DNA from: Asterella californica
Lineage: Eukaryota; Streptophyta; Marchantiopsida; Marchantiales; Aytoniaceae
Assembly (NCBI GenBank): GCA_036924285.1
Contig: JAYKYS010000016.1
Coordinates: forward strand, 1,488,001-1,552,000
Direction of reading: 5' to 3'
DNA length: 64,000 bases
The notes under the pieces were generated by a model. That model was not told the DNA's origin. It made no database searches and saw only the letters and a list, made by a program, of their open reading frames with translations. This document shows, in pieces, positions 1-29,587 of the stretch. The position numbers and the translations under genes were made by a program. The stretch's first letter is position 1. Each line of letters opens with the position of its first letter.

Positions 1-929
1 TACAGGAATTTGCCTCCTCCTGACATTACGTGCATGCTCATTTCTTGTTGTGTCTGACTTGTAGCGTTCCAGGCAGTGGATCGCGCAACTGGGAGTCCTG
101 ATCATGACATGGATGAGCGTGCTAATGATGGCCTCCAACTGAACGGGGGAGCTAGCCTTGATCTCGTGCACGTGAACTGGCAGATTCTCGTATGGGAGAA
201 ATGTAAAAACAGTAAGCAATCCTAGTTTAGACCGGACCTCACAACAAAGTTACCCAGCAGAAGAACAATCACCAAAAATTCTTTCCTAGTTTATACTGTC
301 CAAACTGTCTGTGTTCAGGCCAAGGATGTCCGGCCGGACTAGCGTTATAACGTGCTAGGCAGAGTCCCAGCAGACTTTCGATCACCGTTCGATGAATTGG
401 CCTCGTGCTTCATTCTACCTTCGAATCCTGTCCGATAAGCCCTTTTGTCTGATGAGACCTTTCGTTAATAGTGGCTTCCGAGCCCGCTGAGAGCATGAGA
501 AAGTGAAGCATGCCCTTCTATTTCCAGCGTGCGTGTCCAGACAATTCATGGATCATGATTCATCCCTAACGCGGAAGAGTACCTTCTCTTGTTGTCTTCC
601 TATACCTGCTTTGCTGAACTCGCTGAACTTTGCTGAACTGCTTTGCTGCACTGGCACGAACGAAGTTTCATACCATTCAACATTACCTCCATTGGATTCC
701 ATCAATTTGGAGGAAGGTAGTACTGCCCAGCTGCTCTACGGGCTTTACGGTTTGCAAGTGATACCATAGTTTGACAACCAATCTAGATCGGGAAGCTGAA
801 GCCTGATCATGAAGTCATGCCTAGGTAGCCGAGGCTGGCAGATCCGCACGCTGATGGGCGAAACGAGCACGATAATCGTCGAATTCCTTTCTTCATCCAG
901 TCCTCGTACGTAAGACTGCACAAATATCA
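1..929. other. Intergenic DNA, no gene recognised
   Basis: No reading frame here shows recognisable protein similarity. A short ORF at 503-769 has no motif that I know. A TTCGAATCC word near 420 resembles a tRNA B box, but no cloverleaf can be folded around it. This stretch is the left flank of the MITE at 940-1284. Confidence 0.5.
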
Positions 930-939
930 CGTTTTCTAA

Positions 940-1284
940 CAGAAATTTGCTTGATCATACCCCCAATACGATCGTTGCGATTGATCATACCCTTGACGGA
1001 TTATTGACATTCGAACCAGTCATTTTATCTTTTGGTTCATCATTGTAGTACTTTCAACATTGACTAAATATCACTGTAATTCAAAATATTTACCATTAAA
1101 AACACCTTAGACTATCCATATTTTCATTCCTTTAATATTTGCAATCTCACATGTGAATAACATCACTAAGTGACTGGTTTTATAGGCAATAGCCAGTCAG
1201 GGGTGTGATCAAACCAGACATCGTTAAGAGGGGGTATTATCAAGCTCACGGAACCTACTGGGAGTGTGATCAAGCAAATTTCTG
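940..1284. mobile_element. Mutator-like MITE with terminal inverted repeats and 10-bp target duplication
   Basis: A 345-bp non-coding element. The left end (940-957) reads CAGAAATTTGCTTGATCA and the right end (1267-1284) is its exact reverse complement. The similarity continues inward imperfectly for another ~13 bp. A second inverted pair lies inside, with TTGATCAYACCC-type words near 981-1000 and 1190-1211. The element is flanked by a perfect direct repeat, CGTTTTCTAA, at 930-939 and 1285-1294. A 9-10 bp target-site duplication is typical of Mutator-like DNA transposons. There is no transposase, so the element is non-autonomous and would depend on a transposase encoded elsewhere. The intact duplication and ends suggest it is not very old. 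Other superfamilies with 8-bp duplications (hAT) are less likely. Confidence 0.8.
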
Positions 1285-1294
1285 CGTTTTCTAA

Positions 1295-4200
1295 TTGCAG
1301 TATGGTATACACTGTACAGTCCGTCATCGCTAGCTTACTGATGAGTCGACACTGATTGCTACTTCTCATTGTTTGGAATAAAAGTCCAGATATGACCCGA
1401 TTCAAGCGTCGTCTTTCTTGGGACGGTGATCCAGCTCGGTAGACCCGAGGGAATAATTTGGGTGGGACCGGTAAAATATCTCGGTTCACAGACTCCACAC
1501 TCGTTCATACCGAACTACTGTGTACTTTACAGCATTATGTGTACCGGTCTCAAGGGACGACTACCGGTAAATCTGTTTTTTCGGTCATCTTCGAAATGAT
1601 ATCAGAAAGACTCACATGGACGCACCTGACCACCGTGCTGTGCAGGTCACCCGAGCTGGCGTCTGAAAGCCTTTTTGTGAAAGCAAGTCGTACACCTACC
1701 TACTTTCATAACAAGTAATACGGTTGGTCATGGACAAGTGCAAGGTTTGCAAAATTTCTTATTTATTTCTTTTTGTTTCTTTGAGCATTTAGTAAAATCT
1801 TATTTATTATTAGAAGGTCAAACTCAAATGAGACAAAAAAGAGAACCTGTTTTACTTTTAAGTAGATTTGAATATAAATGAAATGGTTTAAATAACAAAG
1901 GTGATATTTCAGAAAATATAATATATTTTCTTAAGAAAGATATATATATATATACTTTTTTGAGAAATACTGGAAGGTAAGTATACTCGCACATGTTGTC
2001 TCACATATATAAAGAATTGTCCCTCGAGTACATATAAAAGAGCAAGATATACTTTTGAATAATATTAAATTACTAGTTTTATTTCTCTATTTTCAACTCG
2101 GTTTAGTAATAATATTATGTGAACATCATTGCAGTCCGCCTTAATTATGAGTCAGAGACTAACGACTTTTTGCCAGAAGAAGAGAGTTTAAGAACTAAAT
2201 TTTACAAACCGGGAAGAAAAAGAAAAAAAAAACAAACTTCGCCATCTAATCCATATACGTTATTTGCGTAATAAGTCTTTACTCTTAGGAAATAAATTTC
2301 GGTTACAGAGTTATTCACTTTAGGCTTCACATATCATGGAGTTATTAACTTTAAGTTTCATATCTCATGGAGTTATGAATTTTCATGTTCAAGACAAAAC
2401 ACTTTACAGTTTTATGAGATGGTATAATCTTGCCGTTTAATTAATAGTACACATGTGTTTGTGTTCCTGTCCTATCATAACTAAATATTGAACAGATATA
2501 AGTATGAAAATTCATCTACAAAATTCTTAAATATCATTCATGAAAATAACCTAAACTATCATATAAAAATACAGTACAAATAACATACTTATTGTTTTGT
2601 TTTTACTATCTAATGATATAATGTTATAACTATGAACATGTAGTATACCTAACTACATGTACATAGTATATCTATCTAATCTACTATGAACATAACTATA
2701 TATCTAGTTAACTAGTAGATAACTAGATATATATATCAATAGAAATAACTAACTCGTTCTAATGTATCTATTATATCAATCACATTTGATAACAAGTGAA
2801 AGAAAAAAATATACTTCACCTTTTCCATGCATACATATCATTCAACATTTGCTTCATTGACTCAAAGTTACAACTTTTAAAGTTTAAATTTTAAATTCAA
2901 ACCTTACAATTTGATCTCCATAATACCAAGCACATATGAATTCTGGTGGTACCTATGAGCATTAACTTGTTGGAAGCACCTATGTCGCATGAGGTCAAGT
3001 CCTCCTGTCGATGGCGACAGAAAGCCTCACGGCAAAAAAGAAGCCTAAACAATGGGTAGCAAGCTAACCCTTTTTTACTTGATAAGAATAAATAAATATT
3101 AGCTTAACCCTTTTCTTATTATTAAAAGAAGAAAAAAGTAAAAACTTTTTGTGATCTAAAGAATAAATTAGCTAGAATATATGTTGCATCCAGATATGCA
3201 TGGTGGATTCATACTTGCATATTTAACCTTTAGAATACCTACAATCATTCCTTGCGATAGTCCGCAAAGACTGCAAAATTAGGTTCGTTTTCCCACATGT
3301 ATAATCGTGTTAGTTTTATTTTTTTTCTTTTGGTTCGCACGTTTTCTTTTCTTTTCCGGTAAGTGTCCGATACTTTGCTGTCATTTTCGTTCACGATGAT
3401 TTATACAACAAAGATTCTAACAGTCAGTTCACAGTGACGAAATATACTCGTTAATGGAAGATACAGTAGCTTAAAATTCATGTAACCACATCATTACTTG
3501 CATCCCGTTAAAAAATCTATATTCCAAAGTATTGATAACTCTATATTCTCAAACTAAAGTAAATTTTGGAACAAATTACAGTGATATTAACGTCTAGAAT
3601 GAAAGGTCCGAAACTTTCTTCCTTATGTAGGTAATTTATAATCACATTTGATCTCCACGACCAATACTTGATTATCCGTCCACTTGTACGCGGAGATATT
3701 CCTCATACACTCAAAGTAACTACCGAGCTATGAGTGCCACATAGGAGGCTCACTATATCATGTGCCTCTATAGTATGAATACTGGAGCGATTAAGTATCG
3801 AAGTTCGGCTGCTCCTCTTGCTCCTATACATGCCAGACGGGATCATTCTTGCTCCGTGTTTGGACTGGAAGATCTGAAGTTTCTGTAAAAGAAAAATTAA
3901 TTCTATTTTTTGATTAATTAATTAATCAATCAAAGATTAATGAGAAACTAAACTGAGGCTTGAAGTAGTATTCGTATATATGGGTCTTTCGAAACGAATC
4001 TATCATATGAGTGTGCTCCAAGAGGAATCGAGATATACTTGAGTAAAATGTGAACGATATGAAACTGAAGACATCAATTTTCCACTAGAGGCAGCACGGA
4101 GAGTTTAAAATCGTGGTCCTCAACAAGTTCTTCACTTGCTGAACAATAAAATAACATCCTCGTCGGTGAGACTGGAAAAAAAAGGATGTTGCTGATATTC

Positions 4201-4900
4201 TTCATACAGACGGTCTCAAGTACTCACATTGAATCTGAGCGCATATGTTGAATATCATAACCCATTAGCCACTTACAAGAGGGAAGTGTACTTTCCTGAT
4301 TTTATCATAGACCATAGACGGGTTCTCAACATTGTAGCCAAGGGATGATGGCTCTTGTACTTATTGTACTATAAAGCACGTTGTAGAACATTATTAGCAC
4401 TCAGTTCTATCTTACATATCGGCAGCTCCAAACAGAGTAAACTACTCCTCGTCAGCCCGAAGCATATCATCTGTTATATTTTTCATATAGCTTTAGCGAT
4501 AAGTTTCATACTTTTTTATGCAGTATAAAAGCATTCCCACGAACATATGTAGACTTCTGTTATTCAAGTTCTTGATGTAAACTTCTGCTCCTAACAGTCT
4601 AGCTGTACCTTTCCAAACCAAAACTGTTGTAACACATTTCTTAACTTCCATAAGACTAGTAGCATAGACGAAGATATTTATATAAGAGAAAAGCGTCGAC
4701 CTTGAATCTCTAAAAACAAATCACTCGTCAATTGTCTCAATATAATGAAAAGGACCAGCAAAACACTAAAGACAGAATATCGAACCGAGAAAAGAACGAG
4801 CAAAGAGGACATAATCCAAAGCTAGAATTAAAAAACTCTAGAAAGTCTTCAGTATGATCGAAATCTATGTAACGTAAGCTATATTCCTATATAAGTCTAA
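1295..4900. other. AT-rich intergenic DNA
   Basis: Very AT-rich DNA with poly-A/T runs, a short (TA)n tract near 1940-1955 and no ORF that I can assign. It contains a 13-bp perfect inverted repeat (2697-2709 with 2721-2733, 11-nt loop) and a 20-bp perfect palindrome of TTGATTAATT type at 3910-3929. Both could be chance products of the AT bias. No promoter or RNA gene is supported. Confidence 0.5.
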
Positions 4901-6226
4901 CATCATGAAACGAAAGACATCTTGTTTGGATACACCATGTAAGGAGGAATAGTTTCATGGACAAGAAAGCAATTGAATTTACATTTGAAAGAAATGGAAT
5001 CGTGGCAGAAAGTAGCTTGTATGCGATGGAAACCATACGCTAGTAAAGACAGAATGCTATCTTCAAAAGGAGTACTGTCTTGGAGATCATGTATTTTCAC
5101 AAGAGTAGCAATGGGAATAGGCAACAAAGACTACACTAATGTTTCTTCATAAACTGGATACCGACAATAGCAACATTCCTCATTGGCAAGCACACAAAGC
5201 AAAGCAAAAGAGTACGACAGATAAAGAGACAAAAGAAACTCATCTGTGTATGTTGATAGTGAGCGAGCAAGACAAATGTAAGAAATATGCCGAAGATCTT
5301 TGAAGACTACAACCGCAATATTCTCTCCATCGAAAAGAAGAGAGAAATGTAATCTTCCGATGAATTGCAGCAAGCTCAAAGACATGCACGTCAAAAGCAG
5401 ACCCAAAGCGAAATGTCGAAAAGATAAAAGACAAGAAAGAACTTCGACATGCAACCCAATAGCGACTGGACGTCAAGTTCCACAAGTGCCGACGACTAAC
5501 TTGCGAAGTAAACCTTTGTCCAAATGCAAGAAAAAAATTCCACATTAAACTCACTACCAAACATCGGTTCGAAGAGCAAAATCTCACGAGCAATCCATGA
5601 GTAACCTCGAGGTTGAGCAAGAGAACGCACGGGGAATGATCACAAAAGCGGCAGACGTCACTAGAGATTTTTGGCCATGGCTTCTATCGACTTAGTTCCA
5701 AAATACAACTTTGTTGTCACTTAGAACGGACAAGAATGAAAGCTCGGTACGGCTTGTACTGACTAAACTTCGAAAGCATGCCTTCTAGTCACTCACAAAC
5801 CTCGTTGCACCTTGAAATGACCAACGTCTAAAACAAGAATCAAAAATAATCTGATGATCTCTTTTACTCGAATCTAAACGTCTCACATGCAGCAAGCTGT
5901 GAATTCCAACCACTTCTTGTGGTTGGAACCTTCCATATTCTGCTTCTTGTTTGTGCGCTTCGTTTGCTTGTGTTGGCGCTTGATTTTCAGAGTGAGTTCA
6001 CTCAAGTGTGTTGTCGATAGTGAGGCTGGAGTTGCGGACCAGTCAGACTATCTTTGTTTCTCTCATGGTGCGGTTAAAGGGACGACCAACAGACCGTGAG
6101 AGTCTGCATGTGGTGATGGTAGGTACAGGTTGCCTTTACCTTGACCCTCCTAGTAGGGGATAGGTGAGCTCAGTAGGAGCGGGGTTAGGCAAGTGGTGGT
6201 TACGGTGGTGACGGAGATCATTCTGG
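4901..6226. other. Unassigned DNA upstream of the first retrotransposon
   Basis: Several overlapping short ORFs occur on both strands (for example 5240-5620 on the - strand and 5300-5548 on the + strand), and none has a recognisable domain. It may be a decayed repeat. The leader of the retrotransposon that starts at 6227 probably lies in 5880-6226, but I found no copy of the LTR-like sequence at 13255-13860 here. The 5' LTR is therefore either missing or unrecognisable. Confidence 0.4.
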
Positions 6227-7297
6227 TTGGAGAGTGTGTTATCGAGATTCTCTCATCACGAAGTTCTCGGGAGATTGTGGTGGAGGCTTCTGGACAATGA
6301 GTATACACGGAGTGAGGTGAGGTATCGACTACCTACACCATTGCCGTCGGTTGTTCCAGAGGACGAGTCAGACGCAAATAGCACGTTTTTTGATGGTGAG
6401 TCGAGTGTCATCATACTATTGTTGTGGGAGATGGACGAGATCTATGGGGCCACGAAGGGACCTCGACGTTACTCGGATACGATGGGTACCATCGAGCTGG
6501 ATGACTTCATCCAAGAGTTCGACAGTTGATGCGATCTACAGCAGATGCGAAACCCACAGCTGTTTACACCCTTCACGACGTGGAAGGGTTTGTTCCAACA
6601 CTCGGAGAGACCGCCAATGGACGATTATCATGAGTTCCGACGAGACTATAGTATGGAGATTGAGTTGTGGAGACAACATTGGTCTCTCAACTACGTTTCT
6701 ATCACTACTAGCGCAGTTTCAGGAGGCGTAGCACGTACGAGTTCGGGTGCCAGTAGCAGTGGTACATCCACAAGTGGCGGAATATCTACTACCGGCGGTG
6801 CGTCCACTAGTAGTGGAGCAGGTGGTAGTGTGAGCGGGATACCACCAGGGTTTAACCTTGTGGTTCAGTTCTTCCAGTGCTTGAGGAAGAACTATCAGGG
6901 TGTGCAGACCGATAAGTAGAAGAGTCTACAGGAGTTCCAGCGGAAGACTGGATAGAGCCTACGCGAGGCGTTTACTTGCATGAGGCGGTTGATCAGCGTT
7001 ACTCAAGGGGTGACGGAAGCACAGGCAGTCCAGTTCTGGTATGAGATACTAGATCGGGAGCTGCGTAGGAGAGTTAGAGATGCCACTCTTCTTAGAGACA
7101 CTGCTCCGACGTTAGCGGTTGTCTTTGGTTTGGCTGAGCGAATTGAGCTCAACATGGTGGAGGAGAGGGTGATGGTTGCTGGGTTCAGCAAGGAGACACC
7201 ACATGGGGCGATCACCTCTTCTCGAGGATCACAAGCTACACAACAACGTGGTGGTGGTGGTGGTAAAGATCGTGCGGAGCAATCACGATCTCAATGA
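6227..7297 (+). pseudogene. Retrotransposon gag (capsid) remnant
   Basis: One reading frame runs through 6227-7297 and is interrupted by stops at 6527-6529 (TGA), 6917-6919 (TAG) and about 6952-6954 (TAG). The N-terminal part has the gag-type segment FRRDYSMEIELWRQHW. A Gly/Ser/Thr-rich linker follows (about 6730-6840). The C-terminal part, with MRRLISVTQGVTEAQAVQFW and a helix-rich stretch up to LAERIELNMVEER, is typical of the Retrotrans_gag fold. In an intact element this would form the virus-like particle that packages element RNA. The stops show the copy is dead. The assignment rests on position and overall pattern, because gag is poorly conserved. Confidence 0.7.
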
Positions 7298-7760
7298 GGT
7301 GTTGGAGGATCTGGTGGGCAGAAGCCCATGCCGTCCTTCTCTAGTCAGCAACAAGCGGGTCCTTGCTAGACGTGTGATGATCCTCATCAGCAGAAGGATT
7401 GTTCACAGAGGAGAGGTGGTTATGAGACGTCAAGGACATCTCAAGCGATACCTAGGCAATGTGAGCATTGCGGACGACCAGGTCACAATAGTGACCGTTG
7501 TTTTGATCTCCATCCCGAGCTACGGCAAGAGAAGACTGATCGTGGACGAGGGTGGAGGAGCTCAAGGAGACCGTGGTGGTCGAGCTGGAGGTAGAGGTCC
7601 AGCACCTAGGAGAGGACCGGTCGATCCACCGTCTACTACGACGTCAGAAGCAGGTATGGCAACCCGAATTGAGCAGTTGGAGCAGAGGATAGCTAGTATG
7701 GCTATGGCTCAACGGAGATCTGGTGGAACAGAGGCTTCCACGTCTTATGGAGAAGAATGA
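7298..7760 (+). pseudogene. Nucleocapsid zinc knuckle and protease N-terminal linker
   Basis: At 7460-7501 one frame reads CEHCGRPGHNSDRC, a perfect C-X2-C-X4-H-X4-C zinc knuckle, the RNA-binding motif at the end of gag. It is one frame away from the gag ORF and from the 194-codon ORF that spans the same DNA (7176-7760), so a frameshift lies between them. Near 7656-7750 the longer ORF ends with a short helical segment (TRIEQLEQRIASMAMAQRR) that looks like a coiled-coil linker before the protease. The copy is non-functional. Confidence 0.75.
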
Positions 7761-8273
7761 GGTGACTTCAACTTCATGGCTGGTGTGGTGCAGATTGAGA
7801 CATCTGCGGCAATGACTCGAGGTGCAGTACGTGTCTTTGGACCGCGAGGTGCGTCTGTGGAGTTGGATCCACAACGCGAGGAGGTTGGTAGACAAGTCAG
7901 GCTCCTCAATCCTTCACGTTATCGGAGGCGTTGAGGACCACATCTATGATTCCTAAAGGATCTATCGATGGTGTAGTGGAGTTAGAGACATCGACATCTA
8001 GGAGTGGAGGTGATGTAAGTCAACCCTCGATGTCTGTGGATGCGATGTCGAACTCGATGTTGGGGGCGAGTACAGTAGTTTTGCGAGTCTCACTATTTTC
8101 AACCACGGATATGAGGGCATTGGGAGTCAGCTTGGTTCCAGTGTTCCAGTTGGCGGTCACGCTCAGAGAGCGAGGATGTTGTTACCTCTAGTGCTGAGGT
8201 GGTTCAGCGAGAAACGGTAGATGTGTCCATGGAGTCGAGGATCAAGACAGCTACCAATGATACTTGACAAGCG

Positions 8274-9057
8274 GTGGCTGCTAGGTTAGATGAGTTACCA
8301 GCTAGGCCGGCGATTGACCGTGCTGGTTTGACCTCAAGTGTGGTGTTGTTGGACTACAGAAATGGTATCTTCTGTTTGGTGACACCGTCAGGGAAGGTGT
8401 ATCGACCACAGAAAATCTTGTTAGACTCTAGAGCCCCACCGTTGATGTTGAGGAAGGTGACGTGTATTGGCTTGGGTCTGAGGAAGTCCGAGGTGGAGAG
8501 ATGTCCATTCCAGCTACAGACATCTTTAGGGGGATCAAGAGATACAGCTCTACACATGACACGTGAGATGTTGACGGTGAGAGTTCAACCAGATCATCCC
8601 ACGGATGGCTGTGAGAGCCAAGGCCATAGTTACGGCCACGGAGTCTTATGATGTATTGGTTGGAGGTGTTGTGTTATATCTTATGGAGTTCGTAATCGAC
8701 TATTGGACGTAAATAGCATCTTACAGATCAGGTTGGTAGTCCGGTGAGAGACGAGTGAGCCGCTTACCAATGCGGTTCAATGCTAGAGTTGGGACAACGG
8801 AGACTACACCAAGGACGATGCCATCCGTTGTAATGTTCAATTCGGTCATCACTTGGTCGGACGAGTTGTTAGAAGGCAATGCCCATGCGGAGGATACTCC
8901 GTTCTTTGAGGAGATGGAGGACATGCCTAGCATGACAACGGTAGTATCATTTGCCTTGGATGTTTCATTCTGGAGTTCGAGTGGAGAGTTGCAGCAATAT
9001 GCTGATCGGTTGGTGCAGCAGGCTTGGAGTGAAGCCTTTGTACCACCAGTAGAATAA
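8274..9057 (+). pseudogene. Retrotransposon aspartic protease and downstream spacer
   Basis: The segment KILLDSRAPPLML (near 8417) matches the flap-proximal active-site region of retropepsins, normally LLDSGA. The catalytic Asp is kept but the following Gly is Arg here, which would disable the enzyme. The sequence continues in a second frame from about 8605 (ESYDVLVGGVVLY) and on through 8755-9057, after two in-frame stops near 8709 and 8731. The spacer is acidic (EEMEDM, WSDELLEGN). It sits immediately upstream of the methyltransferase, so the intact polyprotein would be ordered protease, spacer, methyltransferase. Confidence 0.65.
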
Positions 9058-9099
9058 CCAAAGGTTGTTCCTGCTACTGGCCCTGTGACTTTATCACCG

Positions 9100-10115
9100 T
9101 TGGAGGACTCTCATTGTAATGATAGTATCCAGAGGAGGGTGTGTGTGTGCTGGAGCTGTTTGGAGAGATCAGCACAAGTTTGGCTGCGGTATTGCAGACA
9201 GACATGCGAGTACAGCGATACTTGTATGTGGAGAGAGATGAGGTTGCGAGACGCATCTCATTGCGTCATGTGGCACGCTTGGTGCAGAGATATCCTGAGT
9301 TGTTGTCCATATCAGCTGTTAGAGGATACCAGCAAGCATTACCGTCAAATATTTCGTTGCTGAGGGTGCAAGATCTCACGTTTGTTGGCACCATTCACTT
9401 GGTGATAGCCGGGTGGCCATGTCAAGATCACACGCGTGCTGGGAGAGGTCATGGTTTACATGACCCGCGATCTAGGATGTTCCGGGAGATGTTACGGATC
9501 TTACGATATCTTTCGACGCATCAGGTGGATTCTTCAACGTACATCTTGGAGAACGTTCCTTTGTTGGGTGATGCTCGTACACTGATGATGACGAGTGTGC
9601 ACCAGGTGCGGTCTTGGGTCGGACCGACAATGTTGTTAGATGCAGCGAGAGAGTAGGATCTCGTGCACATCGTCCACGGTTGTGGTGGACGAACTTAGTA
9701 TCGAGGGAGGTGCTCAAGCGAGCACACGATGCAGTGAGACAATCAGAACATCTCACAGTTGATGGCATCTTGGATGCGAGGCGACGATCTCAAGTAGTGA
9801 GAGTCGTCGATAAGTCACCCATGACAATGATGAACCTAGTGGGATGATCCATGATAGTGTTACCCACTTTGGTAAGCTTTCCAGCGTCACATGCTTACAG
9901 AGATGGAGGACATGGACGTGTGGGATACTCAATTACGGCAATTGGTAGAGCACAATACCGATGAGAGAGAGCGAGCGATGGATTTCACTACGGGTACGAT
10001 GGCAGTAGCTTCAGTATTGGAGGCTTCACGTCGTCAAGTATTGGGTCAAGCAATGGACTTGAATTGCTTGACATGGATTGTTAGCTTTGGATTGGCTGAG
10101 CAGCGTCGGATGTGA
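9100..10115 (+). pseudogene. C5-cytosine DNA methyltransferase domain inside the retrotransposon
   Basis: The main ORF (9141-9656) holds, in order, a weak motif I (VLELFGEISTSLAAVL, with the usual glycines partly lost), motif IV with the catalytic Cys (IAGWPCQ; Cys codon 9420-9422) followed by DHTRAGRGHGLHDPRS, and motif VI (YILENVPLLGD). After a frameshift, 9614-9847 carries HRPRLWWTNL, fitting motif VIII, and a variable region. After another shift, 9891-10115 carries NTDERERAMDF and VLGQAMDLNCLTWIV, fitting motifs IX and X. The order and spacing are those of DNA (cytosine-5) methyltransferases. It lies between protease and reverse transcriptase on the same strand, so it belongs to the element and is not a host gene. 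Three frames and stops make it a relic. I infer a role in methylating element cDNA or the target site; the sequence does not show which. Confidence 0.85.
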
Positions 10116-10346
10116 TCGACGGGTGTTACTGCTCAGACACTTCTGAGCTCTTTGACTATCGAGTCGGTGGAGGCAAAGATTGGGGGCGAGGCATGTGGAG
10201 TTCGTCATCCTTGGACATCATAGGATGTCATATGAGAGGGTGTGGAGCTTGCAGCTAGGATTGTAGGAGTTTTTCGCACAGTGGCGGTGGAGGTTGATGG
10301 TGATGAGCAGAAGGAAACTGCTCTAGAGGTTGCAAGATAGTAGTCA

Positions 10347-11215
10347 ATGACTTCGTCTTCTACCTCTAGCATGGTGACAGAGGATATTTGGGAGCTAGAG
10401 ATTGGACCCAAGCTTATAGGAGAGGAGAGACGAAGAGTTCAAAGATTCCTGAAGAGCTACATGAATTGTTTTGCTTTCAGTATGAAGGATTTGGGTACCT
10501 TGAAGGGACCAAGTATAAAGATCGACTTGGCTAATGACATGTCAATCTTTCGACGTCCTTATAGATATAGTGACATGGAGAGAGCCTTGATCCAGAGTAA
10601 GATTCAAGACTTGTTGGAGGCTGGGTTGGAGGAGATGTCGCATGAAGAGTATGCATCTGTCACAGTTATGCCAGCAAAGAAAGATATGTATGACAACTAC
10701 ACAGATAGGCGGATGTGTGGAGACTACCGTCCTATCAATCGGCAGACAAAGTTCAGTAAGTATGCCATGCTGACACCTGAGGAGATCTTTGATGCAGTGG
10801 GGCATGTGAAGGTCTTCAGTACTTTGGATCTTCGAGCATGTATCATCAATTGCCAGTGAGAGAAGAAGGTAAGTCCAAGACAGCATTCTGGAGAATTGAC
10901 TCTCACGGCAAGGATTGTTTGTATCAGTGGCGGTTCTTATCATTTGGGTTGAAGAACGCCCCTGCTGAGTTCCAGAGGATGATGGACAGGATCCTAGCAG
11001 GATTGGATTTTGTCAGATGTTATATTGACGACATCTTAGTCTATAGTGCTATTGTGGAGGAGCACGAGAGACACTTACGAGATGTGTTCGAGCGGTTGAG
11101 AGCTCATGGGTTGAAGTTACACCCTGAGAAGTGTAAGTTCTTCCAGGAGTTGGTAGAGTATCTGAGCCACACCATCTATCCAAGTGGGTTGGGTGTTCAA
11201 ACAGACAAAAGTTGA
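10347..11215 (+). pseudogene. Ty3/gypsy reverse transcriptase
   Basis: Two ORFs share the domain, 10347-10859 and 10838-11215, and overlap at a frameshift around the motif that normally reads GYHQLP. The first has IDLANDMSIFRRPYRYS, CGDYRPINRQT and FSTLDLRA (motif A with catalytic Asp). The second has KTAFWRI, FGLKNAPAEFQRMMD (motif B) and CYIDDILVY (motif C; YIDD at 11021-11032). All catalytic Asp residues are present. This enzyme would copy element RNA into DNA in the cytoplasmic particle. Apart from the frameshift the domain is well kept, which suggests moderately recent decay. Confidence 0.92.
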
Positions 11216-11830
11216 GACTATTGCACGTATCTCACGTCTCACAGATGGGAGTCGAGTTCGAGCGTTTGTTGGTTTGATGAACTTCTATCGTCGGTACGTG
11301 AAAGGGTTTAATGCAATTGCGAAGTCATTGACCAAGCTGATGAAAGTGGACCAGGAGTGGCAGTGGAGAGATGAGCAAGAGCGAGCTTTTGTAGAGCTCA
11401 AGGATAGGTTGACATCTGCTCTCATCTTGAGGAGACCCGTTAGGGGACATCCTTTCCAACTGCACACAGATTGGAGTATGTTGGGACTTGGAGCAATGCT
11501 GACTCAGCATGATGACGAGAAAAAGGAGTTTGTGGTGGCGTATGTCAGTCGCTCCAACAATTCGGCGGAGATGAGGTACAGTTCATACGAGGGGGAGTGT
11601 TTAGCTGCAGTGTCGGCTGTTGCACACTTCCGATGTTATCTATTTGGAAACCACTTTACTCTCATCACTGATCACTAGTCGCTCAAGTGGTTGATGAAGT
11701 CCGACAAGCTTACAGGGAAGCTTGCACGATGGGCTCTTATCTTACAAAAGTATGACTTTCAAGTAGTACATAGACCTAGAGTTGCAAACCTAGATGCCGA
11801 TGGGTTGAGTCGTAATCCATGCACGAGTCA
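11216..11830 (+). pseudogene. Retrotransposon RNase H domain and tether
   Basis: The segment 11184-11678 continues the RT connection region (FVGLMNFYRRYVKGF) into RNase H. First Asp: LHTDWSMLGLGAML. Glu: YSSYEGECLAAV. Next Asp: TLITDH. The codon after TDH is TAG where the family has Gln (TDHQSLKWL), consistent with a CAG-to-TAG change. The same frame resumes at 11691 and runs through LARWALILQKYDFQVVHRP and LDADGLSRNP, the usual end of Ty3/gypsy RNase H. It degrades template RNA during cDNA synthesis. Confidence 0.9.
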
Positions 11831-12179
11831 GCAGGATCAGACTGAGGCTCGATGGCATGACGAGGTTGATGAGGAGATAGTCTCAAGGTGGTATGAATCT
11901 GCCTTTCTTTGTGTGTTGATCATGAACTCTAATATGGAGGGTCAAGTCGTATCTTTTTCTGGTCAAAGAGTAGATGATGAGTCTCCAGATCTTGAGAGCG
12001 GAGATGGTGTATCAGACCAACGAGATATCCATGACGATGTGACTGTAATGGAGTATCGACGTACTGGCGTGGTGATAGGCACAGTAAGTGCCAAGGAGCT
12101 AAAATCGTGTCTTTCAACGAGCGGGGAGATTTCGACGAGAAAGACGACATGTACTTCGAGTCTGGGACGATGGAAGAGT

Positions 12180-12990
12180 ACGGATAGTGCCACATCCATC
12201 TCAAAAGACACAGTTAGTACGACATGCCCATGAAGAGTTGAGACATTTTGGAGTGAAGCGTACGCATAGCTTATTCCAATGATAGTATTGGTGGCTTTGA
12301 TATGCACGTCGATGTGCATCAGTTTGTCGCACGATGTGTGGTTTGTGATCAAATACGAGCATCATTTAATGCTCCTACTCCACAGTTACACCCCTTACGG
12401 ATTATGAGTTACCGTTGGAGCTTAGATTTTACGGGACCTTTATCGTTGATCGTACGTCACCACCGGTATGTGTTGGTGATGATGGAGCAATTCTCCAAGT
12501 GGATTGAGTTGGTGACATTACCAGACAAGGCGAGTGAAGAGACGGTGTATGCGTTCTTAGATCGAGTGCTGAGTCGTTTTGGAGCACCAGCTGAAGTGCT
12601 GACAGATCAAGGTACAGAGTTCCTTGGTGACCTTCGGTCATTCGTCCTGATTCTGCTGAGGTGCTGAACCTTGATGACCCGGATAGGTGAACGCATGTTC
12701 TCAACGAGCAGAGACATATCAAAGAGTTATGCCTATGACTTTTGAGAACCTAGCGATTGCTCAACATAGAGACACTTTGCGATATGCGACTATTCGAGGA
12801 GGAGGTTGTCGATCATCGATTCGCAGGTTTCATCCTGACGATTATATCTATCTACAGCAGATTGCACCGACGACGTTGGACGTGACCGTAGGACGCACTA
12901 TTTTACGAGTGCATGAGGTGTTATCTTCTGGAGTACTCATGTTAGAGTCGTGATGGTGTTGTTTGGAAAGATCATGTGCGTAATTGCGCG
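12180..12990 (+). pseudogene. Retrotransposon integrase, internally deleted
   Basis: The zinc-binding HHCC domain is split over frames: HEELRHFG (about 12227) supplies the His pair and CVVC (near 12336) the Cys pair. The catalytic core has LDFTGPL and VLTDQGTEFLGD, the first two acidic residues of the D,D,E triad. After about 12640 the reading breaks. What follows (about 12640-12760) no longer fits the core, and the third acidic residue is missing, which points to a deletion. The C-terminal domain follows at 12770-12990, with FENLAIAQHRDTLRYA, FHPDDYIYLQQ and RILRVHEV/SGVLMLES-type elements, then RNCAPCHFPN. It leads directly into the PHD finger. Confidence 0.85.
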
Positions 12991-13050
12991 CCATGTCATT
13001 TTCCCAACACCGTTGACCCAAGCTTAGCAATTGTATGGGCGGGCTTGAGG

Positions 13051-13190
13051 TGTATGTTATGTGGATCTGCTGGTGAAGTAGCTCGTATGTTGGTGTGTGA
13101 TGATTGTTCTAGAAGTTGACACATGTCATGTTTAACTTCACTTCTCAATGTCGTTCTTATTGGACGATGGTTTGTCCTCGATGTATATAG
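13051..13190 (+). pseudogene. PHD finger at the C-terminus of the integrase
   Basis: Directly after the integrase tail the frame reads CMLCGSAGEVARMLVCDDC, then SRS-stop-HMSC, then after a one-base frameshift VCPRC and a TAG stop at 13188-13190. This gives the PHD spacing C-X2-C, X11, C-X2-C, X4, H-X2-C, about 20 residues with GRW, C-X2-C. The internal stop is TGA where PHD fingers normally have Trp, a one-base change. PHD fingers bind histone H3 tails, so this would be a chromatin-targeting module comparable to the chromodomain of chromoviruses. Coordinates of the zinc ligands: Cys codons at 13051-13053 and 13182-13184 bound the finger. The fold is clear from spacing; the histone mark recognised cannot be read from the sequence. 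Confidence 0.8.
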
Positions 13191-13254
13191 CGGAGATAGT
13201 TGATTAGATCTTTGCGTGGTATGAATTGCAGACAGACGACTAACGATGGAGTGA

Positions 13255-13860
13255 TGTAGCACCCGGCCTCTTGATCCTTGCACTCATGAAAGTGTATATC
13301 ACGTAGTTTGGATATGCAGTTATCTGGAATTAGAGGGACCTAATCGCTAGTTAGGGAGGCGATTGTGGTACACTTGTGGATGTGTATGAGATCGTTCGTG
13401 TTTTATGTGTATGTGTGGTATATCTTTGACAGCGATGTATGTTGTGTAGCGATGTGTATGTGCACGACAACTGTCACGTCAGTTTGGGCACCTCGACTAG
13501 ATTGACCGAGTGCGGAGTGGTGAATCTCGGTAAGGCCGTTAGTGTCGTTAGGACGAGTTGTGGGAGAGCCCACTAGGGGTATACTTCGCAGGTAGTGCTT
13601 AGAAGCCTTAGTTCTTCTTTATGTGTATGTGTGATGTATCTTTGACAGCGATGTATGTTGTGTAGCCATGTGTATGTGCATGACAACTATCACGTCAGTG
13701 GACACCTCGGCTAGATTGACCGAGTGCGGAATGACGAATCTCGATAAAGCCATTAGTGCCGTGAGGGGGAGTTGGTGGGAGAACTCACTAGAGATATACT
13801 TCGCAAGTAAGGGCTTAGAAGCTTTAGTTCTTCAAGTTGAATTTTCAAGTTCCAAACTAT
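13255..13860 (+). repeat. LTR-like 3' end of the methyltransferase retrotransposon
   Basis: About 65 bp after the polyprotein stop, the sequence changes to TGTAGCACCCGGCCTC (13255 onward), a typical start of a plant Ty3/gypsy LTR. No matching 5' copy was found, so this is inference from position and the TG start. The 3' boundary is not clear. It contains the 216-bp tandem duplication at 13402-13833. Confidence 0.45.
13402..13833 (+). repeat. 216-bp tandem duplication
   Basis: Copy one is 13402-13617 and copy two is 13618-13833. Both start with TTTATGTGTATGTG, share TATGTTGTGTAG, the segment GATTGACCGAGTGCGGA and GAAGC(C/T)TTAGTTCTTC, and differ by scattered substitutions and small indels. 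The two copies are clearly head-to-tail. The duplication lies inside the putative LTR and may have duplicated promoter elements. Confidence 0.85.
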
Positions 13861-14965
13861 AATAGATAGTTTAGTTATGTATAACTCGGATTCTCTTCGA
13901 ACATAGAGTGAATTTGGCTTGATCATTTGTGAATAATTTTTGTTGCGATGTTAGAGATGGTAATTTCTCTATTTATATTATTGTTATACACTTGTGTTAT
14001 TGTTATACACTTGTAAATGTATACAAGAATGATTTTTCTAAAGCTGCTACCACATTCACTTTCATACATAGAAAATTATCGAAGTAACAGAATTAAAAAC
14101 AAAAAGAACATTGATATAATTTTAATTCAGATTAAACAAATATAATTCTAAATCTATGTGAATCCAATCATCAAGTAAAACAGAGGTCATGTGTTACTAC
14201 GTTTTAGACAATCAACTCTATATGATCTATGTTAATCTTCGCTTTTATATCTGATTTCTAAGAATTAAAAATATTGTTCTTTTCTATATGAAATTAGATT
14301 TAAGTCTAATTTACTTTTTTAAGTGACAATAACCTGCAATGATAACGTCTTAAAAGTGTAGATCATAGACCAAGAATCTCATGTAATAGTAGGTGTCAAA
14401 GTTTAAGCAAAAAGATACCTAAACGAGAGCAAGGAGAAGAGTCTTAATTAGATAGTGCCAGTCCCACCATATGATTCACAGCAATTTTATTGTGATAAAT
14501 AGATACAGATCAAAACCACAAATCGAATCTCCCGCCGAAATTACTCTTTGAAAACTTTACTCTTATCTTGAACTCTAAGATCACACGCATATTAAACAAC
14601 ATGAAAGCTTAGAAAACTGATGTAACATAAAGGAGTCCAGAACTATCGTGCAACTGAATCCAGAATGATTAGCTCTTCAACGCCGGAAAGTTTAGACAAG
14701 CACGAAAAGCCTAGCGATCTTGTCCATCACTTCGTTCCCAGTTTCATCCACAAAGGCCACTGTTTAGCAACTCTATATAGGGCGTACCTGACGGCTTCCT
14801 TTACATATTTCAACCATTCTACCCTGTATCTATAGACACCACTCTGATGTGACAAGATTCTGCACGAGTATATTACCCTGCGATTAAGAGAAGAGATATC
14901 CCAAAGAGCGGTTGGAAATTTATTCACTTCGATCTGTTGCTTCTATATCCTACCGACGCAGCATC
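13861..14965. other. AT-rich DNA and 3' flank of the primase gene
   Basis: AT-rich DNA without assignable ORFs. TTATTGTTATACACTTGT occurs twice in tandem near 13978-14013. The primase gene on the - strand ends at 14966, so the 3' UTR and polyadenylation region of that gene lie in the right part of this stretch. I cannot fix the poly(A) site. Confidence 0.5.
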
Positions 14966-23182: not shown

Positions 23183-23422
23183 TTTCCACCTCCATTCTAC
23201 CATTTAGACAAGGTGACAATATAGTAGTGCTCACTCTTTAAGAAATATCTGAATTCTGTCCAAAAATATAGCTAAGTTTAATCATAACTAACTTTAGCTA
23301 GTCATGACTAACTTTATACCTCCTTAACGTACTTGAGCAGCAAATAAACATTCTCCACACTTAGTTATAACTAAATACCTTACTAATAGACAAACTTCAT
23401 ATGTGTAACATATGTCGTTACT
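23183..23422 (-). repeat. Truncated 3' LTR of the second retrotransposon
   Basis: These 240 bp match 30828-31067 with no gaps and about 16 substitutions. On the - strand the LTR starts with (A/T)GTAACGAC, the usual TGTAACGAC-type beginning, here with its first base changed. A purine-rich stretch (GGGGGTAAAATT on the - strand) directly precedes it and may be the polypurine tract. The rest of the LTR, present in the right copy, is missing beyond 23183. Confidence 0.8.
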
Positions 23423-23476
23423 AATTTTACCCCCGAACTAAATTTTTGCTCCGTCCTCGGAATGAAGAGAGAACTT

Positions 23477-24559
23477 TCATCGATGAAACAACTTCAACTT
23501 GTCATGGTTGATCCAATCGGATCTATGTTCTCCTAGCTCTCGAAAATCATATGTGAAGTTGCTCCACACCTTATCTACAACAAAAGGACCAAAATATCTA
23601 GGAAGAAACTTCTTCCTAGCTCTCTTGAATCTGATAGCATCATACAACATTACCCAATCTCCGACTTGAAAATTTTTTACCTCCCTCTTGCCCAATCATT
23701 TGTCGTAATTCTTCTTTTGATACGCTTGAGCTCGTTCCATCCGGATCATTGCTACCGCTCGGATCTCTTCCAACTCCATGAGTTGCTCCTTTCTTGATCT
23801 GACGACGTCTTCTCTCTTCGACCTCTTCAACTTTCGTTGAATAGTTTGAAAAGTATCCAATTCGAATTGGATTGGCAACTTGGACTCCACTCCATAAACA
23901 AGTCAAAATGGAGAATATCTAGTAGAAGTCTTTGTTGTCACTCGATACTCTCATAAGATGACATGTAGTCGCTTATGTCAAGTATGTTTCGTAGTCTCAA
24001 CACTAGCATCTTTGGTGAGCATCATACAAAGTGTAAGATTAATCTTCTTCGCAAGACCATTAGCATTTGATTTGTATGACGTCGTTACTCGTGGCTTGAT
24101 AGAAAAGTGTTGCAACATAGCATTAGTCATGCTCTCTACAGACTCTCCTCCTCTATTTGAGATCAACTCTAACTGACATCCAAATCTTGTGATGATCATC
24201 TCTCATAGGAATCTACTCACTTCTGTTTCATTAGTCTCCCTCAAAGGTCTAGCCTCTACCCACTTGGTACAATAGTCAGTGACGACTACAATGTATCTAT
24301 TGCTTTGAGGTGTCTTATTAAGAAGATTTATAAAGTCAATACCTCACTTCTCAAATGGTACTAACATTGGAATTGATCTTAATGGAGGTGTTATAATAGA
24401 CTTTAGAGCAAATGATTGACATACGTCACATGTTTTGCAATAGTCTAAACACTCTTTGAAAATACCTCTCCAATGATAACGCGCATCCAAAATCTTGGAG
24501 GTTGTTATCTTATCAGCAAAGTGACCTCCGCAAACAATGCCGTCGTACAACTCGTGCAT
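23477..24559 (-). pseudogene. Integrase of the second retrotransposon
   Basis: The zinc domain is in 24559-24344, with GGHFA for one His and CKTCDVC for the Cys pair. The core continues through stops: GIDFI (first Asp), VVVTDYCTKWVEARPL and ELISNRGGES near 24150. The last motif is normally SDRGGEF, so the second catalytic Asp is Asn here. The C-terminal domain is split between 23906-23696 and 23695-23477, with NFQVGDWVMLYD, RKKFLPRYFGPFVVDKVW and LKLFH. The changed active-site residue and stops make it inactive. Confidence 0.85.
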
Positions 24560-24577
24560 TAGCTTGAAAGCTTCCTT

Positions 24578-25186
24578 CTAACCAACTGCTCTCCTTAGTA
24601 ATCCATCTGCTCCTTGATGAAACATAATTCTCTCCACCATGGTGTAAGATTTGCATCTCTTGATCAACGCATCATGTTCTAGAGTATGCATACCTTCTAG
24701 AAAAGAGCCATCTGCAAGAAAACTCCAGATTTCCTTGTATTCATCAAGTACCTCCTCAATACTTGTGATGGTCATCACTTGCTCATCTTGAAATGAATCA
24801 TCAAACGGTTCTTCTCCCTCATCCTCATAAGTTCTCGACAAAAAATCAGCATTTGTCAGCTTTTTCCCTGGTCTATCTTCGATCACATAATCATATTCTG
24901 TTAGAAGGATCTTCCAACGAGTAATACAACGTTCGACATTAGGCTTATTAAAGATATACTTTAAAGCCTTGTGATATGTGACTATGGAAAATTTCTCTCC
25001 TAGCAAGTAATGTAGAAATTTCTTCAATCCAAAAATCGCAACTAATCCTTCTCGTTCAATCACAGAGTAATTCTTCTCTGCGGGAATCATCTGCCTACTA
25101 GCATAAGCTATAGGATGATCATGCCCATCTCCATCTAGCTGACTTAAAGTACATCCGATTACTACATTGGAGACATCCGTATACAT
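24578..25186 (-). pseudogene. RNase H of the second retrotransposon
   Basis: An open frame of 202 codons starts with YTDVSNVVIGCTLSQ (Asp). It has the conserved HPIAYASRQM and AEKNYSVIEREGLV (Glu), then FSIVTYHKALKYIF, where the usual TDH is TYH so the last Asp is lost. RWKILLTEYDY and ADFLSR close the domain. A tether with an acidic stretch follows and leads into the integrase zinc domain at 24559. Confidence 0.88.
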
Positions 25187-25210
25187 AATAAAGTATTTAC
25201 TCCACTCAAG

Positions 25211-26177
25211 TTAAGCAAGTATACGAGTTGTCACCTTTTTCAACTCCTCAAATGCTTCTTTTGTCTTCTGACCATGCACTATCAAGTCAAAATCAACTTC
25301 ATTCTTCATGTACATAGTCAAAATTATTGCTTTGTTCGAGAACGAAAAGACAAACCTACAATAATATCTAACCATACCAAGAAACTGTCTCAACTTTGTC
25401 AAGTTGATTAGAAATGAAAGATCCACAATCTTCTTCACCTCTCAGGATCTACCACAATCTCATTCTTGGAAAGATGTGTCTTTACAGTAGATCTTCTTCA
25501 CAACCAAAGATGCACTTCTCTGGATTTTGAAAATCATTGGCTTGCTCCAACCGCTGCAAAACTTTGATCACATGATCAAAAAGTAGTCATCTTTTCTTCT
25601 CTTCGTCAATGAAATTGTGGACAAACTTTCTTACGAATGGTTCAACCACCTTGTTCATGAACCTCTGAAATGTGACCGAAGCATTACACAATCCGAATGA
25701 CATCACTCAAAATGCAAATGTTCCTCTAGGAGTAATGAATGTCGTCAACTATTCGTAGTCATGTGCTTTTATCTATAAATGACAAAGGATAATAATCCTT
25801 CTTGTTAACTGCATTCAACTTCTTATAGTCTATGCACACTCGTTGCTTACCATTCTTCTTCTTGACAATCACAATGGGTGAAACCCATTATGAGTTCTCC
25901 ACCTCGTAGATAAAACTTGCATCCTTTAACTTATCTATCTCCTCCTTGATCATCATTACAGGTGTAGGATTGACCTTTTTCTACTTCTGTGGACTGGTCT
26001 TGCGTTCTCTTCCAATTCGAGTCGGTGAGTCTCTAGAGTCACCTCCTTTAAATCTTTATAACTAAAATCAAATACATGGATATATTTCTGAAATATATCT
26101 AGGAATCTACTTTTCTCATCTTGAATGACATTTATGCCAAACTTCAGGGTAGAGAGTCTTGCCACAATCTGTCTCAC
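25211..26177 (-). pseudogene. Reverse transcriptase of the second retrotransposon
   Basis: The N-terminal part (26177-25956) has DLKEVTLETHRLELEENARP. Further pieces in shifting frames give IVKKKNGKQRVCIDYKKLN (near 25850) and GLCNASVTFQRFMN-type sequence (near 25660). VHNFIDEEKK (near 25610) occupies the position of the catalytic YIDD and would be inactive. LRQFLGMVRYYCRF (25438-25211) is the connection to RNase H. At least four frame interruptions are present. Confidence 0.8.
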
Positions 26178-26499
26178 TCAACTCTTCTTTGTCAACGTCT
26201 TTCTCAACTGCTGGTCGAGGCAACAAGTCAATAGCACTAAGTTCATGAACTGATTCATCCCGGCCGAATCCTTCATCATCAAACGAGGATTCTTGATCGT
26301 AAGAATCTCTCGTATCTACTTCTGAGACACTCTGATCGTCCTCCGTATCAGATTCTCAATAGTCACTAGTGGGTCTATAAGAGTCAAAAGTCACCACTTC
26401 AACTTCAACACCCGAGAGAGGTACTATCACTCTGTGATCTCTAGATCCAATTCATAAATATCCCTTATGCTACATATATGTGATGCGCACAGCTCTCAA

Positions 26500-26780
26500 C
26501 CAAGGCCTACCTAGGAGCGAATCATAACTAGAGTCTTTTAGCACTTGAAATGACATCAATATTTGAACTCCCATCACATACACAACCACCTTCTCTAACA
26601 CACCAAGAGGTCTTACCTGTTGCTTGTAGCCATCCTCACGACAATGCTAACCGGGTGAGTTGGTTCCATCCCCAACTTCTTCATCAACCTCTCCGATATG
26701 ACATTTACAGCCGATCCTCCATCCACCAACACGTCAGAGACATAGTGATCATTCAATCAGACTTTAATCTTTGAAGTCAT
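26500..26780 (-). pseudogene. Aspartic protease of the second retrotransposon
   Basis: On the - strand around 26735-26640 the sequence reads SDVLVDGGSAVNVISERLMKK and then LGMEPTHP. The DGGSA segment is the retropepsin active-site Asp motif, and it is followed by the usual hydrophobic strand. Stops interrupt the flanks. The position between gag and reverse transcriptase agrees. Confidence 0.7.
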
Positions 26781-27294
26781 AGTACATACCTCTAAAGCAT
26801 GCACATCCACCACACCAACTCTCACAGACTTTGATGTTTTGCTCTTGGATTTCTTCTTCTTGGTTCTCTTAGAACTCAGTACTCCTTTGAGTTTCATTTG
26901 TAAATTGAGGTTGAGTGCAATCAATTGTCCATCTATGATGTTGGCTTTTTAGCACCTACATCTTCAACCACATCATATCTCACTTGAGAAGATGAAATGG
27001 TAAAATTCTTCATCCTCAACTTCCTTCTTGGTTTTCTTGGTGTACTCGAAATATTACTCGAGTGAGTACTTCTACTTGGTGACTCCTCCATGAAAATTGG
27101 TTCATCAGAAAATCAAGAATTTTTTCTTTCTTGAGCTAAAAGCTCCACCGGTGCATGAGAAGAGTTCGAGCTCTATCCTTTTTCATAGATGAGATCTCGC
27201 ATTACATCGATAGTAGTCACTCTCTTGCTTGTGATGGATTTCCTCCACCAACATTCATTCTGATAGTGTCAGCACCCATTGCTCCGTTGTTAAG

Positions 27295-28225
27295 ACAATT
27301 TCGTTGGAAATGAGAACCTCCACAAGTCCAACATGTGATTCCTCCAAAGTTACCTTGGTTGCCTTCAAAGTTATCTTGATTTCCTCGATTGTGATTGTTG
27401 TCGTAACCTCTTTAACCTCCTCTTCCACCTTTGTTCCTCCATTCTCGTAACTGCACCACGTTTATCTTGAGATCCGCAAGAATCTGTGATGCTCTTTAAC
27501 TCGATATGAAAACCAGAGGTGGTAGTAGACATTGCTGTAGAGACAAACGAGCTTGGTACCTCCGTTGGAGTAGGAGTTAACGTTGAAGCGATCATCAGTT
27601 GTGATGGTCCAGATGTTATCATTATGGTTACACCAAGAGTCAGAGTCGACACCAGAGCGGCATGATGAGGTTGGATGATATCCTCTTCATCCAAACTCTC
27701 TTCCATATTTGTCGTAATCCTGATGGCTTCGACTTTGATTGCTAGCTTCTCGTACCTCACTTGGGTTTGAATTGAAGACCTCAACCCTCTCACCAAGTTC
27801 TTGGTCAGCACTGCTCCAATCCATGCCATCGTTAGCTCCATGTTGTCTCCACTCTTCTGTGGAACTGTCCGAAACCGTTGCTCCAACTTATCCACCCTTT
27901 CGGCATATTGTTGAACTTTCTCGTCGTCATGTTGCTTAAAATGAGTAAGCTCCACCATGAGCTTCTCATAACTCTCTTCTGGAAGAAACTCTTCTTTGAA
28001 TGTATTACTCAACGTCTCCATTGTGTCCTCAACTGCATTAGGCATCTTGTTTTTCTGTCGATCTTCATACCACGTAAAGCAAAATTTTCTAAAAAGCTCT
28101 AGCAGTAACAACACCCATTCTTCTTTCCTTCTCACGTTGTTTCCGACGCAACCTCTTTTGAAATCTCGAACAAACGGCTCTACATTTTCATTGTCATTCC
28201 CATGAAACACTTGTAGCTTCCTCAT
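27295..28225 (-). pseudogene. Gag with zinc knuckle, second retrotransposon
   Basis: An open frame of 284 codons (28225-27371) starts MRKLQVFHGNDNENVEPF. It has the Retrotrans_gag signature FTWYEDRQ, LSNTFKEEFLP and LMVELTHFKQHDDEKVQQYA. A zinc knuckle, CWTCGGSHFQRNC (C-X2-C-X3-H-X4-C), lies at 27333-27295 in a nearby frame. The capsid part looks largely intact; only the tail is shifted. Confidence 0.82.
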
Positions 28226-28437
28226 TTTATAACTACTATTTCTACTCTTCTAATCTTTGTGCAATAACGACTCGCTAAAAGAGTACGAAAATCACCAATT
28301 CCATTCGAGAATAATCTACCATAGATAAAATGAAAAGAAATAGTTGTAACAACACTCTTGTGTCATTTTTTCTCCCAAGGTAATCATGAGCTTGAGTCTC
28401 ATTATCGCCTTCTCCACCATCCAAATGACAATCTCCA

Positions 28438-28932: not shown

Positions 28933-29056
28933 CCATTAATTGTACAAAATACTTTTGAGGAAAATTATTCTACATCACTTTCTTAACTCTTTCGAGTTTT
29001 ATATTGGAAAATCATGTATTATACATGCTATACACGAAACAAAATCCAATCTAAAA

Positions 29057-29392: not shown

Positions 29393-29587
29393 CTTGTATG
29401 CCGAAACGTATATCTCTTAGTCGATAAGAGATCTCTCCAAGAATTTTGTGACCTCCATTAGTTCAACCTCCAAGCTACTAACTCATGAAGTTTTAACAAA
29501 AACTTCCCTAATCAGAAGAAATGGAGCTTATTGTATAAATTTCTAGAGAACTAAAAGTTGTATATTTTGACTTCACCCATGATTGTC

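What the first reader, a model, noticed from the sequence alone, without database searches (positions are those of the whole stretch)
9100..10115. DNA methyltransferase domain embedded in a Ty3/gypsy retrotransposon
Seen: a C5-cytosine methyltransferase signature (PCQ with the catalytic Cys, ENV, RPRLWW, and motif X-like VLGQAMDL) lies between protease and reverse transcriptase on the same strand, without a host-gene boundary. Known: retrotransposon-encoded methyltransferases have been reported in charophyte algae and dinoflagellates (from memory). Inference: this lineage carries an element that could methylate its own cDNA or insertion sites, influencing host silencing. If the host is a land plant, this extends the known range.
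Basis: partly seen in the sequence, partly recalled or inferred. Interest (0 to 1): 0.9.

Follow-up and report, generated by a model that had tools for sequence, protein, structure and literature searches.

The report
Plant retrotransposon carrying DNA methyltransferase
This is a decayed copy of an abundant jumping gene in a land plant that carries its own DNA-methylating enzyme, a combination reported before in an alga and in dinoflagellates and seen here also in liverworts and peat mosses.

The parts
5912..13997 (+). relic of the element; the first about 1.46 kb of an intact copy, repeat A1 included, is not detected here
   Evidence: blastn of intact copy L033 against the window: 90.2% over 5912-12630, 89.1% over 12630-13616, 81.6% over 13619-13997
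6479..7198 (+). Gag (capsid) region
   Evidence: tblastn 85.8% to L033; Retrotrans_gag in Marchantia relative P0041 only at E 0.054, below cut-off
7346..7534 (+). two CCHC zinc knuckles
   Evidence: tblastn 81.8% to L033; C-x2-C..H..C patterns read by eye from the translation
8298..8775 (+). aspartic protease region (named from the LLDSGA motif of L033; no Pfam hit); reads LLDSRA at 8421
8773..9105 (+). conserved linker between protease and methyltransferase
   Evidence: tblastn 78.4%
9135..10109 (+). DNMT3-type C5-cytosine methyltransferase, in three frame pieces 9135-9650, 9644-9922, 9918-10109
   Evidence: PF00145 E 2.8e-7; tblastn
10338..10346 (+). site of the leaky stop: TAG-TAG-TCA here, TAG-CAG-TCA in the 31 other distinct copies examined
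10437..11324 (+). reverse transcriptase, with frameshifts
   Evidence: PF00078 E 8.8e-25 for 10793-11212
11352..11864 (+). RNase H
   Evidence: PF17919 E 2.4e-31; 90.6%
12103..12950 (+). integrase, with about 256 bp missing at 12630
   Evidence: PF00665 E 5.2e-14
13027..13170 (+). PHD finger, degenerate
   Evidence: tblastn 75%, E 6.6e-19; PF00628 E 6.5e-11 in intact copy L033
13362..13980 (+). 3' repeat block: B 13362-13468, A 13472-13616 (partial), B 13619-13684 (partial), A 13690-13980
   Evidence: blastn of parts A and B of L033
43775..44862 (-). second relic of the same family: repeat A plus pieces of the 5' leader
   Evidence: blastn

Best explanation
A high-copy, recently mobile retroelement of a land plant (probably a bryophyte) with a Ty3/gypsy-type pol carries a DNMT3-type methyltransferase fused to the end of its Gag-protease polyprotein. 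A TMV-type leaky UAG lets a minority of ribosomes go on into RT-RNaseH-integrase-PHD, so the methyltransferase is made at Gag level and packaged in every particle. There it most likely methylates the element's own new cDNA before integration, and the PHD finger steers the integrase to a chromatin state. Shown: architecture, copy number (lower bound), purifying selection, leaky-stop context, repeat structure, target duplications, DNMT3-like fold. Inferred: readthrough, packaging, catalytic activity, cDNA as substrate, PHD targeting. The window copy itself is dead.
Against: No activity, expression or readthrough data. By single-sequence search of the PDB the best hit of the window piece is M.HaeIII (E 0.0012), ahead of DNMT3A (0.0094). 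The K. nitens element enzyme and human DNMT3B gave no methylation in yeast, SymbioDIRS-Dnmt3 did (PMC5890265, section 10). Distant metagenome relatives carry the enzyme between RNase H and integrase, so Gag-level dosage is not universal. The copies were picked by similarity to the methyltransferase, so I cannot say that every copy has one. CpG o/e of six copies, 0.72-0.75, is not unusual for the window (0.54-1.04). dN/dS pools decayed copies, has no confidence interval, and the tail between methyltransferase and UAG gives 3.2.
Confidence: 0.6

Rival explanations
1. The methyltransferase marks the insertion site and its surroundings after integration, damping host damage and letting the element persist (self-restraint), not protecting the cDNA.
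For: DNMT3-type fold; the PHD finger on the integrase side is by sequence most like PHD fingers of MLL3, CHD4, DPF2 and KDM5B, which read histones (recalled); slowing of transposition is offered as a possibility in PMC5890265, section 11.
Against: Placement on the Gag side separates it from the integrase-PHD part. The copies examined are alike and many (mean pairwise identity 96.0% among 31), which does not look like strong restraint.
Confidence: 0.2
2. The enzyme acts on RNA (element genomic RNA or a tRNA) inside the particle.
For: Packaged with Gag it would meet RNA first; RNA methylation was suggested for SymbioLINE-Dnmt (PMC5890265, section 11).
Against: The structure is nearest DNMT3; DNMT2 hits by sequence are weaker than DNMT3A (E 0.37-0.89 against 0.0094).
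Confidence: 0.1
3. A host methyltransferase gene copy was caught by chance between unrelated element fragments.
For: A single old relic could look like this.
Against: 150 scored genomic matches, 44 in one uninterrupted frame of about 1370 aa; the same domain order in the six fetched copies and in proteins of Marchantia, Calypogeia and Sphagnum; separate from host DNMT3-like and DRM-like genes in the tree (93/92).
Confidence: 0.01
4. The domain is conserved but non-enzymatic, for example a DNA- or RNA-binding part of the capsid.
For: Some distant relatives read GWECQ or GFECQ in place of GWPCQ, and a few copies have GWPCQDH or AWPCQGH.
Against: The catalytic Cys and ENV are kept in 37 of 37 aligned rows (five rows repeat copies, one row has a stop next to the Cys), and dN/dS is close to that of RT.
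Confidence: 0.09

Closest known systems
KnitGypsy-Dnmt3 of Klebsormidium nitens (PMC5890265)
   [quoted passage not shown] 4 legend)
   Different: Host is a land plant; here the enzyme lies upstream of a leaky stop, whereas the paper says Pol polyprotein ORF (its figure was not seen); the main text names no PHD finger (0 occurrences). Its copy number was not seen. Sequence kinship not tested: no K. nitens protein was listed (120 of 444 listed) or 52
SymbioDIRS-Dnmt3 of Symbiodinium (PMC5890265)
   Same: Retroelement with a DNMT3 domain; DIRS repeats
   Different: That is a DIRS element; here the integrase is of the rve type with 4-bp target duplications
Tf1-type self-primed Ty3/gypsy elements (recalled)
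   Same: A stretch of 12 nt or more at the end of A1 is the reverse complement of a stretch inside A, 5 of 6 copies; in L036 the partner found is in A2
   Different: Split direct repeats, methyltransferase, PHD finger
TMV-type readthrough stop UAG-CAR-YYA (recalled)
   Same: Exact context in own copies and in L123
   Different: Here it separates Gag-protease-methyltransferase from RT-integrase-PHD in a retroelement

Membership tests
Ty3/gypsy (Metaviridae) | pol order RT - RNase H - integrase (rve, H2C2) | tested here: met
   L033 ORF2
Ty3/gypsy (Metaviridae) | short target-site duplication from a DDE integrase | tested here: met
   4-bp duplications TCGG, ATGG, GAGC, ACTA in 4 of 4 copies with defined ends, of six fetched (read by eye)
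Ty3/gypsy (Metaviridae) | two identical long terminal repeats at the ends | tested here: not met
   A1 ... B1 A2 B2 in 4 of 6 copies; L031 rearranged tandem, L035 no repeat found. So I call it gypsy-type in pol, not a canonical LTR element
DIRS/PAT tyrosine-recombinase elements | split direct repeats | tested here: met
   4 of 6 copies
DIRS/PAT tyrosine-recombinase elements | tyrosine recombinase | tested here: not met
   Pfam scan of both ORFs of L033 at E up to 0.5 finds rve and no recombinase
DNMT3 family | motifs I to X in unrearranged order with a short target-recognition part | tested here: met
   alignment with fish DNMT3B-type P0181, P0189 over the domain, with gaps in the fish rows
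DNMT3 family | fold nearest DNMT3 | tested here: met
DNMT3 family | nests inside DNMT3 in a tree with DNMT1, CMT, DRM and bacterial enzymes | tested here: inconclusive
   only fish DNMT3B-type, one host DNMT3-like gene and two host DRM-like halves were in the tree; element clade separate 93/92
DNMT3 family | de novo methylation of CG | not testable with these tools
   needs enzyme assay
KnitGypsy-Dnmt3 | same element lineage by sequence | not tested
   no K. nitens sequence obtained
TMV-type readthrough | UAG-CAR-YYA followed by a long in-frame ORF | tested here: met
TMV-type readthrough | measured readthrough | not testable with these tools
   needs reporter assay

The most novel reading that the evidence does not exclude
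An ancient gypsy-PHD lineage has kept a captured DNMT3 across bryophytes and other, unnamed lineages seen in metagenomes, moving it between the RNaseH/integrase boundary and the Gag end, where a leaky stop sets its dose. Its cDNA, bounded by PPT and self-priming site as [B-A] repeats, joins into a circle and is integrated from an internal palindrome GACAGCTGTC, not from its linear ends, after being methylated in the particle: a retroelement cycle with a pre-methylated circular intermediate.
Probability: 0.25. Interest if true: 0.88.

Novelty: new variant of a known kind. Interest (0 to 1): 0.72.

Why it matters
[quoted passage not shown] Here the family is found in the model liverwort Marchantia, in Calypogeia and in Sphagnum, and in at least 150 scored matches in the window's land-plant host. 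That puts a possibly self-methylating retroelement into a genetically tractable plant, so the question left open in 2018, why retrotransposons carry DNA methyltransferases, can be tested directly. It also warns that counts of DNMT3-like genes in bryophytes could include element copies, and that de novo methylation there may have a second source.

Tried and rejected
Host gene captured by chance: rejected. Bacterial or phage origin: the viral-contig scan gave 79 loci, at best 48% over short stretches; the genome-contig scan gave 7 loci, six actinobacterial at 27-36% and one, L123, at 50% in a cyanobacterial MAG, which carries a gypsy pol and is most likely a misbinned eukaryotic contig. The long-protein search could not return bacterial enzymes, which are too short for its length window, so a bacterial root is not excluded. 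P0155 in viral contigs: none. Rfam on the window: nothing at gathering scores. Plain LTRs: not found. K. nitens element: not retrieved. Naming the host species: not achieved. Sampling copies by RT, to ask how many lack the methyltransferase: not done, the tool was unreachable. The spectrum of decay gave small numbers only (C-to-T at CHG 7 of 47, CG 5 of 74, CHH 16 of 370). My statement that I found no report in land plants rests on searches in an open-access library without preprints.

Full report
OBSERVATION. The window stretch 9126-9656 is an open frame of 176 aa that hits Pfam DNA_methylase at E 2.8e-7, with 30.7 bits against a cut-off of 22. The rest of the domain continues in frame 2 and then again in frame 3 to 10109. 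The copy is broken: relative to copy L033 it has 2 inserted and 2 deleted bases and one stop in the methyltransferase, about 256 bp missing in the integrase, and no detected 5' repeat.

THE ELEMENT IN ITS GENOME. The window lies in an assembly of 516.7 Mb. Searching it with the 176-aa piece gave 3155 first-look candidates, of which 150 were scored; apart from the window itself they are 85-88% identical. By my count of that table, 44 of 150 lie in frames of 1358-1383 aa with no stop in the match, and one more of that size has a stop. L032, L033 and L034 have an ORF1 of 1368-1381 aa and, after one stop, an ORF2 of 1041 aa in the same frame; L031 and L035 are damaged in ORF2, L036 in both. Pfam finds DNA_methylase in ORF1 (E 1.8e-8) and RVT_1, RNase H, H2C2, rve and a PHD finger (E 6.5e-11) in ORF2 of L033. 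By sequence the PHD finger is nearest those of MLL3, CHD4, ubi-d4 (DPF2) and KDM5B.

THE LEAKY STOP. The junction reads AGA-UAG-CAG-UCA in 6 of 6 fetched full copies and in 31 of 31 distinct copies other than the window (37 rows, five of them repeats of the same copies, L001 being the window). The window reads UAG-UAG-UCA. UAG-CAR-YYA is the tobacco mosaic virus type of readthrough context (recalled). An independent relative, L123, in a contig filed under a cyanobacterial MAG, has ORF1 (open at its 5' end) ending in UAG-CAA-UCA and ORF2 of 1047 aa in frame, with RT 64%, integrase 72%, PHD 64% and methyltransferase 49% identical to L033. So the motif is kept over a long distance, in the one distant relative for which I had DNA. 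The consequence, methyltransferase at Gag dosage, is inferred.

REPEATS AND ENDS. Four of six copies (L032, L033, L034, L036) have a 294-297-bp repeat A1 at the 5' end and B1-A2-B2 at the 3' end, B being about 108-116 bp by the blastn matches. The ends are TGTC and GACA, flanked by the 4-bp duplications TCGG, ATGG, GAGC and ACTA, which I read by eye. B1 and A2 meet in GACA-GC-TGTC, a palindrome, in these four. A1 and A2 differ at 0, 0.3, 1.4 and 1.3% of positions in L032, L033, L034 and L036, so these insertions look young. L031 has a rearranged tandem 3' end; L035 shows no repeat. A stretch of at least 12 nt at the end of A1 is the reverse complement of a stretch inside A in 5 of 6 copies (15 nt in L032; 10 nt in L035; in L036 the partner is in A2), like Tf1 self-priming (recalled), and a purine-rich tract precedes B1 in 4 of 6. 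Read this way, cDNA would end in [B-A] repeats, and the integrated form is a circular permutation of it, with A2|B2 being the join of the predicted cDNA ends. This is inference. The same kind of repeats is described for the K. nitens element (PMC5890265, Fig. 4 legend, read in section 9).

SELECTION. Pooled Nei-Gojobori dN/dS over 31 copies is 0.277 for the methyltransferase, 0.251 for the RT part, 0.444 for protease, 0.547 for the linker and 3.2 for the short tail between methyltransferase and UAG, where synonymous variation is very low. The copies were the best matches to the window's methyltransferase plus two others, some are damaged, and there is no confidence interval. The catalytic Cys is kept in 37 of 37 rows.

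RELATIVES. One search gave 36 proteins; (X-padded query) 444, 120 listed; one search gave 71 at E 0.1 or better. Two main arrangements occur: methyltransferase after protease (bryophytes, P0138-P0148, P0164, L123; P0121 by its linker), and methyltransferase between RNase H and integrase (P0149-P0178 apart from P0164 and the Marchantia protein P0172; some of these are partial and show only one neighbour), most with a PHD finger; P0179 has it before RT. In the methyltransferase tree the first arrangement is a clade of 27 rows at 99/99. MT and RT trees of 19 rows both keep its three members apart at 100/100, and distances correlate at r 0.72 (18 rows). That favours joint descent with one move of the domain, but two captures from near sources are not excluded.

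HOST. Forty-nine dirigent matches above cut-off, none in the 14 control genomes, whose identity I do not know, point to a land plant (recalled). The element falls among liverwort and Sphagnum elements. The species is not known.

LITERATURE. PMC5890265 (sections 9, 10, 11 and passages read) describes KnitGypsy-Dnmt3 and the Symbiodinium elements; its main text has no 'moss' and no 'PHD'. It was the only paper with those element names. PMC12344493 (passages) mentions DNMT3 members in retrotransposons as reported in streptophytes and dinoflagellates. PMC6338049 (passages) denies such transposons in land plants such as tracheophytes. PMC5784723 (passages) counts five methyltransferases in Marchantia, none from elements in the passages seen. 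PMC9516144, PMC10952607, PMC6453930 and PMC3286476: passages only, nothing on such elements. I found no report in land plants in the ten searches made, in an open-access library.

VERDICT. A real feature, a new variant of a known kind. The window copy is a fossil; the family is young and abundant in this genome. Its function remains inferred.

Noticed in passing
L031-L036 and 25 further copies, about 78 codons between methyltransferase and UAG: Third codon positions vary less (8 polymorphic sites) than first and second (19, 18); shared sites 1 against 13, Fisher p 0.001 versus the methyltransferase. An overlapping frame or RNA constraint near the leaky stop is possible; it is one of several comparisons.
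   Followed up: partly
window 23183-31066, strand -: Another gypsy-type element with 239-bp repeats 93% alike, RNase H E 1.7e-31 and gag E 4.4e-7.
   Followed up: no
window 39082-40392, strand +: Open frame of 436 aa with a Retrotrans_gag domain, E 2.5e-9, near a GC-rich stretch at about 34 to 38 kb.
   Followed up: no
P0155 residues about 1700-1880, and C-termini of P0159 and P0170: Metagenome relatives with the methyltransferase between RNase H and integrase end in a further domain with DPWAG and SPWF- or APP-like motifs, reminiscent of an N6-type methyltransferase (by eye).
   Followed up: no
L123 (CADCWO010000201.1): A contig of a Synechococcales MAG carries a gypsy-type pol with methyltransferase and PHD finger, so it is probably a misbinned eukaryotic contig.
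   Followed up: partly
own genome C1:40145499-40146481 (L135, L138): Host two-exon DNMT3-like gene with PCQ in motif IV, where the fish enzymes have PCN.
   Followed up: partly
window relic versus 31 copies: C-to-T decay is highest at CHG (7 of 47) against CG (5 of 74) and CHH (16 of 370), and the lost readthrough CAG is itself a CHG site.
   Followed up: partly
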